NCBI RefSeq assembly: GCF_900185015.1
Contig: NZ_FXYD01000002.1
Location: 372,001-436,000 of the forward strand
Source: Octadecabacter ascidiaceicola
GTDB lineage: Bacteria > Pseudomonadota > Alphaproteobacteria > Rhodobacterales > Rhodobacteraceae
DNA: 64,000 bases
Reading direction: 5' to 3'
This document shows positions 48,265-60,263 of this stretch, in pieces. Positions within the stretch are counted from its first letter, which is position 1. Each line of letters begins with the position of its first letter. The notes under the pieces are model-generated. The model did not search any database and was not told where the DNA came from. It saw only the letters and a list, made by a program, of their open reading frames with translations. A program made the translations under genes and the position numbers.

Positions 48265-48293
48265 GTTGGTGCCTCGGTCAGGCGAAGGAGATT

Positions 48294-48321
48294 GAGTATT
48301 TAGGAGCCAAAGAAAGCGAAG
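48294..48321 (-). repeat. Dispersed gene-end motif GAGTATTTA-GAGCCAAAG, copy 1
   Basis: On the plus strand the motif reads GAGTATTTAGGAGCCAAAGA and continues AAGCGAAG. Read in the direction of the leftward gene it follows the hairpin at 48324-48349. Copy 2 is at 57497-57955, split by an insertion; the two agree except for one base within the first ~22. Confidence 0.65.
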
Positions 48322-57162: not shown

Positions 57163-57393
57163 ATGGCGCTGTCATACAAAGCACGAAAGCGCTGGTCACT
57201 GGTGATATTGCTGGTGGGGCTGCCGATCTATGTGGTCGTCGCGGTGAGTGTGATTAATTGGCTTTACCCCAATCCGATGGAATTACCGCCACCTTTGGTG
57301 CAAATCGGAATATTCGTCGGGATCGGCTTACTTTGGGCGTTTCCCTTGAAGTTTATCTTCAAAGGGATCGGCCAAGAAGACCCGGACGCCTGA
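57163..57393 (+). CDS. DUF2842 small membrane protein
   Basis: A 76-residue protein with two helices: WSLVILLVGLPIYVVVAVSV and LVQIGIFVGIGLLWAFPLKF, ending KGIGQEDPDA. This matches DUF2842, a small membrane family regularly found in alphaproteobacteria; it is nine bases after purA. No function is known. A hairpin terminator follows at 57408-57430. Confidence 0.85.
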   Translation: MALSYKARKRWSLVILLVGLPIYVVVAVSVINWLYPNPMELPPPLVQIGIFVGIGLLWAFPLKFIFKGIGQEDPDA

Positions 57394-57430: not shown

Positions 57431-57589
57431 TTGGCGTATTTGGTGGTGTGAGCCAATCGCGGAGACGTGGTGACTGGTTTTGCGGCCCTGCGGGGCGAGT
57501 ATTTACGGCCTTATGTAACAAACGCACCAAGCGGGTGTGAACGATGATTAGGACTCCGCAACTCCGCAAGATCATTAGATGTTTGCGGA

Positions 57590-57733
57590 ATGAAATATCT
57601 AATGCGCTCACTTTCCGACACTTTCGCTGGTCAGATTCAAATGCTGTTCGTGGTTATCGTGGGCAGCCTGATTGGTCTGATCTACTTGTACTTCGATCTG
57701 GGAGCCGGTGACGCCATGGCGGAAATACCCTAG
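57590..57733 (+). CDS. Possible small membrane peptide inside the insertion
   Basis: A 47-codon frame starting MKYLMRSLSDTFAG with one hydrophobic segment LFVVIVGSLIGLIYLYFDLG and ending DAMAEIP. It lies fully within the inverted-repeat element and overlaps the opposite ORF, so at most one of them is real. No ribosome-binding site stands out. Confidence 0.25.
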   Translation: MKYLMRSLSDTFAGQIQMLFVVIVGSLIGLIYLYFDLGAGDAMAEIP

Positions 57734-57877
57734 GGGCCTATCGTGAACACACTTGGGCTTAGGGATGCCACGCCGCGCCATTAACGCTTCCACGTGTTCA
57801 AGCGCCTCGTCTTGTCGGTACAGTGCAAGCAGCGCGTTGTTGATTGTTTTGTCCTGCCCGGCCGTATGATGATTCAC
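57608..57877 (-). CDS. Possible ORF inside the insertion
   Basis: An 89-codon frame from a GTG at 57877, beginning MNHHTAGQDKTINNALLALY and continuing QDEALEHVEALMARRGI. The first half looks helical and could be a fragment of a mobile-element protein; the second half is likely out-of-frame. No transposase motif is recognised. Confidence 0.25.
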   Translation of the reverse strand: MNHHTAGQDKTINNALLALYRQDEALEHVEALMARRGIPKPKCVHDRPLGYFRHGVTGSQIEVQVDQTNQAAHDNHEQHLNLTSESVGK

Positions 57878-57961
57878 GACGGCTCAGAAATCAGCCAGAT
57901 TGTTGGTGCGTTTGATACATAAGGCCGAGTATTTAAGAGCCAAAGAAAATGAAAGAAAGAA

Positions 57962-58016: not shown

Positions 58017-60263
58017 TTAGCTCGCGCGGCGTTCCGGGTTAAAGCGGCTGTCGTCTGCAACCTGGAAGCGGCCATTACGTACTTTGGTAAAGCGACCAGC
58101 ACGCAAGAGGTCTGCAAAGCTGCGCAATCCGTCTTCGCGGTTGAAGTCATCTGTCGCCACCGTGCGCACGCGGCGCAGGATTTGCGGGCGAGAAAACTCA
58201 TCCGCGCCTTCCACGAAGGAAGTGTATGCGGCTGCTGCTTCGAGCAGGTCCGGAAGCTCGGATGCGCCCATGTTTTCTGCGAACTCAGCGAATGAACCCG
58301 CAGATTGCTGTGCTGCTTCGGCATCCGGACGTGTTGCGACGCGGCGTGGTACGACTGGCGTATCGCGCTTTTCGCTTTCCACCATGTCGACGCGCTGGGC
58401 TGCCACAAGTTTGAGCGGAGCAGGACGTGGACGTTCGGTGCGGTTACTTGAACGCACGACCGGACGTGGACGAACAACACCACCGCTTTCAGGCGGAACC
58501 GCTTGTGACAAGTCTTCACGGAATGCGTTTTCCGCTTCTTGCCCGTCGTCCTGCGTATCACCCATTTGGCGCGCTGCTTCTTTTGCAGCGACGGCTGCCT
58601 TGAGTTGCGCGATTGCGTCGCGGCGGCGGCTGCCTTCCGGTTCTTGCATTTGAGCGTCGGATTCAGACATCAAGCGGTCAAGCGCTGCGTCATCCACTTG
58701 CGGCTCTTTGGTAAGGAACGCGGACTTCTCGGTTTCCTCTGCAGGCGCTTCATCAGCTTCTACCGAAACTTCGGCTTCTACTTCAGTAACGTCTTCGATT
58801 GCAGGTGCTGGTGTGGCCGTTTCATCAGCGTTTACTGCATCAGAAATGGCGTCCAGTGTTTGCGCATCATCGGCGACGGACGCTACTTCTTCAGGTTCCA
58901 ATACAGCATCTTCTTGAGCGAAGTCAGCTTCGATCGCTGCAAGGTCTTCATCAAGGTCTAGTGTTTCGCTTTCTGAAAGTGCTGCTTGCGCGAAGTCGCT
59001 GTCTTCGAGATATTCATCAAGCTCATCGGCTCCATCCAAGAGGCCAAAGTCTGGCCCCGATTTAGATGATGGCATTGCTACCGGCGCATCAATATCGCCG
59101 TTTTCGACAGCATCTTCGAAATCCGCGCGTTTCATGCGGATGACACGCGACTGGCTGGTGTCCGCTTCGGCAGTCATTGCATCGTCGCTTTCAGACGGTT
59201 GAACATCAGGTTCAGCCGGTTCAACTGCCGCATCGACGGTGTGACGACCCATTACACGAGAAATCATGTCAGAACCGTTGTCGTCAGAGGCGGGTGTCGC
59301 GCTTTTGTTTTCTACTTCACCGACGACTTGAGCGTCTTGATCGATTTCAGTTTCGTGAGCGTCGAGTTCTGCGACAAGGTCACCGAATTCGCCGTCTTCC
59401 GCCTGAACATCCGCTACGTCTGGCGCGTCACTCTTAGGCAAGAATTGCGCCGTCAGGTCGTCAGTTGCTGCGTTTTCATCGTCATCAGAATTCCTGACAA
59501 CGGCGCGGATACGCTGAAGCTTTGCAGCGACGCTATCTGCATCCGGATGGGCCGGGATATCAGAATGGGCGGGGGCCGGATCGTTCGTCGCGAGCACAGA
59601 AGACGGCGCGTCGCCGCGCGTTTCTTCGACGTCGGATCCGGTCGTCCCCTCCGCTTGCGCTGCCGTCGCAGTGCTTACGGAACTTAGAATTGATAAATCA
59701 GATGTGTCGTCCGCTGCGTTGTTAGCATCTGCCTTTGCCTCGGCTTCGGACTTTTCATCTTCTGCCGCTTTTGCTTCAGCTTCGGCCTTCGCTTTTGCTG
59801 CGACTTTAGCTTCAACTTTCGCGTCTTCCTCTGCCTTAGCAGCGGCTTCGGCTTCACGCTTTGCTTTGCGTGCGGCCTTGCGGCGCGCTTTGCGTTCGGC
59901 TTTGGCGGCTTTGCGTTCCGCTTCGACCTTGGCACGCGAATCTTTGTCGTGCTCAGGTTCGGCAGTGGCTTCATCTGCGTCGCTTGGCGCGTCTGACTGG
60001 TCTGTCAGGGCCGCAGCGCGCAGCACAATGCCGCTGTCATCCATGCTGGCGTCAACGCGGCGCGAAATTTCACGCTCGGCGATCTTTGCTAGCATTTCTG
60101 CATCTGGGGTCGGGGGTTCTGCCCCGAAGTACCGATCATCAGAGGCCAAACCGCGGAAATACTCCGCAATTGCCTTCATCGTGTTGAAGGAATCGTCGAA
60201 ACCTTCAAGTGTGCACGAAAAAGTGCCGTAAGAGACGGTAAGAATTTTACTCGTTCCAACCAT
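58017..60263 (-). CDS. Large acidic Ala/Glu-rich protein of unknown function
   Basis: A 748-residue soluble protein. A conserved-looking N-terminal unit (residues ~1-75, SKILTVSYGTFSCTLEGFDD, FGAEPPTPDAEMLAKI) is followed by a long charged coiled-coil region (~105-190, AKAERKARRKAARKAKREAE and AKVEAKVAAKAKAEAEAKAA), an extensive Asp/Glu-rich part (~200-590) and a C-terminal domain (~660-748, FAEFAENMGASELPDLLEAA, ILRRVRTVATDDF, LRSFADLLRAGRFTKVRNGR). Several low-complexity stretches make a scaffold or cytoskeletal organiser likely (inference). No signal peptide. Single gene; divergent from thiN. Confidence 0.7.
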   Translation of the reverse strand: MVGTSKILTVSYGTFSCTLEGFDDSFNTMKAIAEYFRGLASDDRYFGAEPPTPDAEMLAKIAEREISRRVDASMDDSGIVLRAAALTDQSDAPSDADEATAEPEHDKDSRAKVEAERKAAKAERKARRKAARKAKREAEAAAKAEEDAKVEAKVAAKAKAEAEAKAAEDEKSEAEAKADANNAADDTSDLSILSSVSTATAAQAEGTTGSDVEETRGDAPSSVLATNDPAPAHSDIPAHPDADSVAAKLQRIRAVVRNSDDDENAATDDLTAQFLPKSDAPDVADVQAEDGEFGDLVAELDAHETEIDQDAQVVGEVENKSATPASDDNGSDMISRVMGRHTVDAAVEPAEPDVQPSESDDAMTAEADTSQSRVIRMKRADFEDAVENGDIDAPVAMPSSKSGPDFGLLDGADELDEYLEDSDFAQAALSESETLDLDEDLAAIEADFAQEDAVLEPEEVASVADDAQTLDAISDAVNADETATPAPAIEDVTEVEAEVSVEADEAPAEETEKSAFLTKEPQVDDAALDRLMSESDAQMQEPEGSRRRDAIAQLKAAVAAKEAARQMGDTQDDGQEAENAFREDLSQAVPPESGGVVRPRPVVRSSNRTERPRPAPLKLVAAQRVDMVESEKRDTPVVPRRVATRPDAEAAQQSAGSFAEFAENMGASELPDLLEAAAAYTSFVEGADEFSRPQILRRVRTVATDDFNREDGLRSFADLLRAGRFTKVRNGRFQVADDSRFNPERRAS

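What the first reader, a model, noticed from the sequence alone, without database searches (positions are those of the whole stretch)
57498..57935. MITE-like insertion with 25-bp inverted ends and a perfect 8-bp duplication
Seen: 24 of 25 bases match between the inverted ends (57506-57530 and 57903-57927), and AGTATTTA stands directly outside both. Removing 422 bases plus one duplicate copy restores a dispersed gene-end motif nearly identical to 48294-48321. No transposase is recognised inside. Inference: a non-autonomous element moved by a transposase elsewhere, and its target is a repeat found at gene ends. The two short ORFs inside may be relics or a passenger.
Basis: seen in the sequence. 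Interest (0 to 1): 0.75.

Follow-up and report, generated by a model that had tools for sequence, protein, structure and literature searches.

The report
Gutted IS1595 transposon, motif-targeted family
The 422-base insertion is the gutted remnant of a known type of jumping gene (IS1595 family) that landed in a repeated motif between two genes, and its intact relatives appear to choose their landing sites with a separate small DNA-binding protein rather than with the transposase.

Summary
In detail: 24/25-bp inverted ends, a perfect 8-bp duplication, no transposase. Three same-genus genomes have a precise empty site, one identical to the predicted join. The ends occur nowhere else in this genome, so it is a single relic, not a proliferated MITE.

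Relatives carry the same ends on ~3-kb elements encoding an IS1595-family transposase, a DUF6471 protein and a ~120-aa passenger. The window copy keeps the left 55 bp, an unmatched ~175 bp, and the right 192 bp with the first 43 codons of that passenger: an internal-deletion derivative.

21 of 39 intact insertions duplicate RRTATTTN within it; strict matches are ~5900-fold enriched. Beyond that, target type follows the passenger, not the transposase (partial rank correlation 0.45, P 0.0005; transposase -0.15, DUF6471 0.01). One passenger clade uses CCTCCGGCGGG-RRTATTT, another CCCCCGG-RRTATTT, a third one codon of an HNH gene; transposases 97% identical hit different targets when their passengers differ. 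The passenger is confidently predicted as a winged helix. I infer a dedicated target selector (about 0.55), which would be new for IS1595. The window insertion itself is an ordinary derivative.

The parts
57485..57505 (+). left half of the target motif, CCCTGCGGGGCGAGTATTTA (same-genus genome G007 carries the uninterrupted motif)
57498..57505 (+). 8-bp target-site duplication AGTATTTA, left copy
57506..57530 (+). left terminal inverted repeat (24/25)
   Evidence: same ends in relatives
57506..57560 (+). left terminal 55 bp, 94% identical to one end of the 6.7-kb element in G003 (L032) and 93% to an end of L098
57561..57734 (.). central ~175 bp with no match in any related element; holds the orphan 47-aa ORF 57590-57733 (+)
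57728..57856 (-). relic of the passenger gene: first ~43 codons, 79% identical to the G003 passenger; the frame leaves the family sequence after ...KCVHDRPLG, before the winged helix
57735..57927 (+). right terminal ~192 bp, 73% identical to a copy in G002 (L023)
57903..57927 (-). right terminal inverted repeat (24/25)
57928..57935 (+). 8-bp target-site duplication AGTATTTA, right copy
57936..57956 (+). right half of the target motif, AGAGCCAAAGAAAATGAAAGA

Best explanation
The 422-bp insertion is an internally deleted, non-autonomous copy of an IS1595-family transposon. A transposase supplied by a full-length relative recognised its ends and inserted it by a cut giving an 8-bp duplication into an intergenic AGTATTTA core of a dispersed motif. 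[Shown: ends, duplication, empty site, family, deletion structure, target motif. Inferred: mobilisation in trans.] Full-length relatives carry a transposase, a DUF6471 protein and a ~120-aa passenger predicted as a winged helix. [Shown.] The passenger most likely binds target DNA next to the 8-bp core and brings the transposase there, so passenger exchange changes the target. [Inferred from correlation; about 0.55 on its own. The confidence given here is for the element's identity and origin.]
For: Precise empty sites in G007 (join identical), G018 and G009. Same ends in other genera, often paired ~3 kb apart: 33 of 394 family genomes and 52 of 390 order genomes. Transposase PF12762 4.7e-34, PF12760 4e-14, NF033547 1.7e-42. 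Left 55 bp 94% identical, right 192 bp 73% identical, passenger start 79%. 39 insertions with an 8-bp duplication of at most 1 mismatch, 21 of them in the motif at one exact register; strict pattern 8/22 against 0.0014 expected, P 7e-29. Selector part: target type follows passenger, not transposase or DUF6471; 7 label changes on the passenger tree against 13 on the transposase tree, shuffled mean 15.8; the passenger clades go with different motif halves; not explained by which variants each host offers (joint P 0.0013); winged helix with pLDDT 93-97 in its core.
Against: The central 175 bp matches nothing known, so a plain deletion is not the whole history. The left and right parts match different relatives, and no direct parent copy was found. 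The selector role is correlational: a few passengers break the rule (L095, L146 and L099 off-motif, L090 in the other variant), one passenger clade has no obvious motif, and within A-type passengers alone the effect is weaker (0.275, P 0.012). Passenger trees are poorly resolved at depth.
Confidence: 0.88

Rival explanations
1. The transposase itself sets target preference (GATATTTC-like cores in a GC-rich setting); the passenger is ordinary cargo or a regulator and its link with target type is an accident of shared history.
For: Off-motif duplications also favour AT-rich cores bounded by G or C; a single transposase gene is the norm for the family (PMC8101967).
Against: Target similarity is unrelated to transposase similarity (-0.15) or DUF6471 similarity (0.008) once the passenger is accounted for, while passenger similarity predicts it (0.45, P 0.0005). 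L102 and L139 transposases are 97% identical yet carry 24%-identical passengers and hit different targets.
Confidence: 0.25
2. The motif enrichment reflects selection: insertions in intergenic repeats are tolerated and survive, others are lost.
For: The window insertion and many others are intergenic.
Against: The duplication sits at one exact register of the motif, which tolerance alone would not give; enrichment ~5900-fold; cluster-3 elements insert inside a gene, at the same codon, in three hosts.
Confidence: 0.07
3. Target type tracks host lineage: each host offers mainly one motif variant and has its own passengers.
For: Variant counts differ strongly between hosts, e.g. G222 has 3 of one and 104 of the other.
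Against: G083 (4 vs 34) and G297 (13 vs 56) received the insertion in the rarer variant, the one predicted by the passenger; joint probability under random choice among host motifs 0.0013; motif-rich hosts G268 and G203 hold off-motif insertions.
Confidence: 0.1
4. An older repeat that merely resembles a transposon; the 8-bp repeat belongs to that repeat.
For: The duplicated 8-mer is indeed the core of a dispersed motif.
Against: Exact empty sites in three relatives with a single 8-mer; the same ends bracket transposase-encoding elements with many different 8-bp duplications.
Confidence: 0.01

Closest known systems
IS1595 family of insertion sequences (DDE_Tnp_IS1595, zinc ribbon; groups ISPna2, ISH4, IS1016, IS1595, ISSod11, ISNwi1, ISNha5; PMC8101967)
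   Same: Transposase domains, zinc ribbon, 8-bp duplication, terminal inverted repeats.
   Different: Members are described as having a single transposase gene; here the full-length form carries two further conserved genes and shows strong target specificity. Ends start CGGCC. The subgroup could not be assigned (no ISfinder).
Bacterial MITEs and internal-deletion derivatives of insertion sequences
   Same: Short, no transposase, ends of an autonomous family.
   Different: One copy only in its genome, and it retains a passenger-gene fragment plus an unmatched centre.
Tn7 and relatives with dedicated target-selector proteins (TnsD/TniQ; general knowledge)
   Same: Works like it, if the inference holds: a separate DNA-binding protein decides where the transposase inserts; different selectors give different sites, including one fixed site in a gene.
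   Different: Unrelated transposase; selector is a ~120-aa winged helix with no TniQ match; no AAA+ regulator was seen among the conserved genes. Not a member.
IS110/IS1111 seekRNA-guided insertion sequences (PMC11187229)
   Same: Target choice separable from the transposase.
   Different: There an RNA from a non-coding region guides a DEDD transposase; here a protein-coding passenger and a DDE transposase.

Membership tests
IS1595 family (full-length relatives) | DDE_Tnp_IS1595 catalytic domain | tested here: met
   PF12762 4.7e-34; NF033547 1.7e-42, above curated cut-offs
IS1595 family (full-length relatives) | N-terminal zinc ribbon (all groups but IS1016) | tested here: met
   PF12760 4e-14
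IS1595 family (full-length relatives) | 8-bp target-site duplication | tested here: met
   39 complete elements with 8-bp duplication, at most 1 mismatch; 56 after extension
IS1595 family (full-length relatives) | single transposase gene | tested here: not met
   passenger in 44 of 56 elements and DUF6471 in all 39 tested; PMC8101967 words this feature as usual, so it is not taken as excluding
IS1595 family (full-length relatives) | assignment to an ISfinder subgroup | not testable with these tools
   ISfinder is not held
MITE / non-autonomous derivative (window element) | shares terminal inverted repeats with an autonomous family | tested here: met
MITE / non-autonomous derivative (window element) | no transposase gene of its own | tested here: met
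MITE / non-autonomous derivative (window element) | multiple copies in the genome (MITE in the narrow sense) | tested here: not met
   single copy; so filed as an internal-deletion derivative, not as a MITE family
Tn7-type target-selector systems | TniQ/TnsD homology of the selector | tested here: not met
   no Pfam TniQ match among 31 passengers, only weak winged-helix hits
Tn7-type target-selector systems | target choice set by a protein other than the transposase | tested here: inconclusive
   supported by correlation, no experiment

The most novel reading that the evidence does not exclude
Full-length relatives of the window element form a modular IS1595-family transposon in which a small winged-helix passenger protein, exchanged between near-identical transposases, is the target selector. 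Different passenger clades read different half-sites (CCTCCGGCGGG or CCCCCGG next to an RRTATTTN core, or one codon of an HNH gene).
Probability: 0.55. Interest if true: 0.8.

Novelty: new variant of a known kind. Interest (0 to 1): 0.6.

Why it matters
The window insertion alone is ordinary. What it leads to is not: simple DDE insertion sequences are normally thought to choose targets with the transposase itself. If a 120-residue winged-helix protein directs an IS1595 transposase, this is a compact protein-guided insertion system with natural exchangeable selectors, and swapping selectors between two near-identical elements would test it directly. It also gives a reason to look at the dispersed GC-rich/RRTATTT motif, for which the held library gave no description.

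Tried and rejected
Hairpin or palindrome targeting: folding energy around the insertion points does not differ from flanks (mean z 0.16 off-motif, 0.28 on-motif). Orientation control: the passenger end lies on either side of the motif, so no fixed orientation. Mobilisation by the resident IS1595 transposase (G000:C3:38837-39577): only 30% identical, and none of the inverted repeats found around it resembles these ends. Plasmids: no match to the element; transposase relatives there at most about 61% identical. Printed descriptions of the motif or of IS1595 target selectors: none found, but the founding IS1595 paper (Siguier 2009) is not held, so an earlier mention of passenger genes cannot be excluded.

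Full report
Observation. The inverted ends, the 422-bp length and the perfect AGTATTTA duplication are as stated. The end sequence has no match in 100 shuffles of the window, even at 3 mismatches.

Is it an insertion? Joining the flanks with one copy of the 8-mer gives an expected empty site. G007 carries exactly that sequence over CCCTGCGGGGCGAGTATTTAAGAGCCAAAGAA, and G018 and G009 carry close versions; all three are same-genus genomes with the same neighbouring sequence and nothing between. The insertion lies between the DUF2842 gene (57163-57393, +) and the 748-aa ORF 58017-60263 (-), which converge.

Copies. The element is alone in its genome. The only IS1595-type transposase found in that genome is 30% identical to the relatives' one. 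In the genus, G002 has about twenty matches, mostly partial copies, and G003 a 6.7-kb copy. The end sequence is in 33 of 394 sampled family genomes, commonly as a pair about 3 kb apart, in 52 of 390 sampled order genomes at a different setting, and in named genera such as Roseovarius, Sulfitobacter, Shimia and Maritimibacter and, further afield, Devosia and Pelagibacterium.

What it derives from. The 325-aa transposase in G003 is IS1595 family by Pfam and NCBIfam. Full-length elements share a layout: DUF6471 gene divergent from the transposase gene, and a ~120-aa passenger gene starting about 60 bp inside one end and reading inwards. The window copy has 55 bp of one end at 94% identity, then about 175 bp matching nothing, then 192 bp of the passenger end in which the first 43 codons of the passenger survive at 79% identity. 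The break falls before the predicted winged helix. Other copies lacking a detectable transposase exist, with lengths 384, 735, 1219, 1308, 1331 and 1548 bp.

Target of the family. Of 39 complete insertions with at most one mismatch in the 8-bp duplication, 21 duplicate an RRTATTTN-like core. A strict pattern, SSSNRRTATTT at the exact register, is met by 8 of 22 insertions in genomes whose motif counts are known, against 0.0014 expected. Hairpin targeting was tested and rejected.

Target follows the passenger. In the first table, elements with A-type passengers were on-motif 30 times and off-motif 14 times, B-type 1 and 17 (Fisher P 9e-6; some single-end rows may be the two ends of one element, so this P is only indicative). 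Transposases of the two types are interleaved on their tree. With 39 elements carrying both genes and a complete target, target similarity correlates with passenger identity given transposase identity (0.454, permutation P 0.0002), and not with transposase identity given passenger identity (-0.149). Adding DUF6471 as a control leaves passenger 0.452 (P 0.0005), DUF6471 0.008, transposase -0.15; within A-type passengers alone 0.275 (P 0.012). The three-state target label needs 7 changes on the passenger tree and 13 on the transposase tree; shuffled labels need 15.8.

The detail is finer than on or off. Six of seven cluster-6 passengers sit in CCTCCGGCGG-type sites. Ten of thirteen cluster-5 passengers sit in CCCCCGG-type sites, one in the other variant and two off. 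Counting only motif insertions this is 6:0 against 1:10, P about 6e-4 by hand calculation (1.2e-4 without the exception). Three cluster-3 elements lie at the same codon of a gene whose product reads LHHLVPKL..GPTVLLHQICHNEIHA, a marginal Pfam HNH match (E 0.0006, just under the curated cut-off). Host motif supply does not explain the pattern: if five cluster-6 insertions and six CCCCCGG-type insertions (clusters 5 and 9) chose at random among the two variants of their own hosts, all eleven matching the rule has probability 0.0013 (L090 in G360, the exception, is not among the eleven).

What the passenger is. AlphaFold2 on 31 aligned passengers gives mean pLDDT 88.9 with a helix-helix-helix-strand-strand core at 93-97, a winged helix. 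Foldseek's best hits are Fur/Zur/PerR and SlyA-like regulators, with modest E-values (0.03 and above). Pfam gives only weak winged-helix hits, and no TniQ.

Mechanism proposed. Shown: IS1595-type ends and transposase, 8-bp duplications at a fixed register in a motif, and dependence of target type on passenger type in the statistical sense. Inferred: the passenger binds the half-site beside the 8-bp core and recruits the transposase. The window copy, which has lost the transposase gene and most of the passenger gene, would have been inserted with both proteins supplied in trans. Its passenger relic is of the cluster-6 kind, and its target CCCTGCGGGGCG-AGTATTTA resembles the cluster-6 site more than CCCCCGG, which is consistent but is a single case.

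Limits. The paper that was read describes IS1595 members as having one transposase gene and usually 8-bp duplications (PMC8101967).

Verdict. The family behind it is the interesting part.

Noticed in passing
window 57485-57505 with 57936-57956, and 48280-48321; other genomes: A dispersed motif, GC-rich half (CCTCCGGCGG or CCCCCGG) then RRTATTT then an A/G-rich half, occurs from none or a few up to over 100 times per genome with almost none for the reversed control pattern. Its function is unknown to me and the held library gave no description.
   Followed up: partly
L103, L281, L284 (coordinates p,q): Three elements with cluster-3 passengers interrupt the same codon of an HNH-like gene in three hosts; a fourth (L148) has one end in what looks like the same site.
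   Followed up: partly
L099 and L164: Two insertions share CACTTTATGSCAGCMAAATCCG beside the end, possibly another fixed site.
   Followed up: no
window 57590-57733: Orphan 47-aa ORF with a hydrophobic stretch by eye; no relative in 120 other genomes. May be chance.
   Followed up: partly
G000:C3:38837-39577 (L036): A distant IS1595-family transposase (30% identity) with an open 288-aa frame elsewhere in the same genome.
   Followed up: partly
L132, L197, L297 targets: Several B-passenger insertions duplicate TTTGTC followed by CGC or CCGC, a possible second target motif.
   Followed up: no
G002 (loci L021-L031): One same-genus genome carries about twenty mostly decayed copies of the family.
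   Followed up: no
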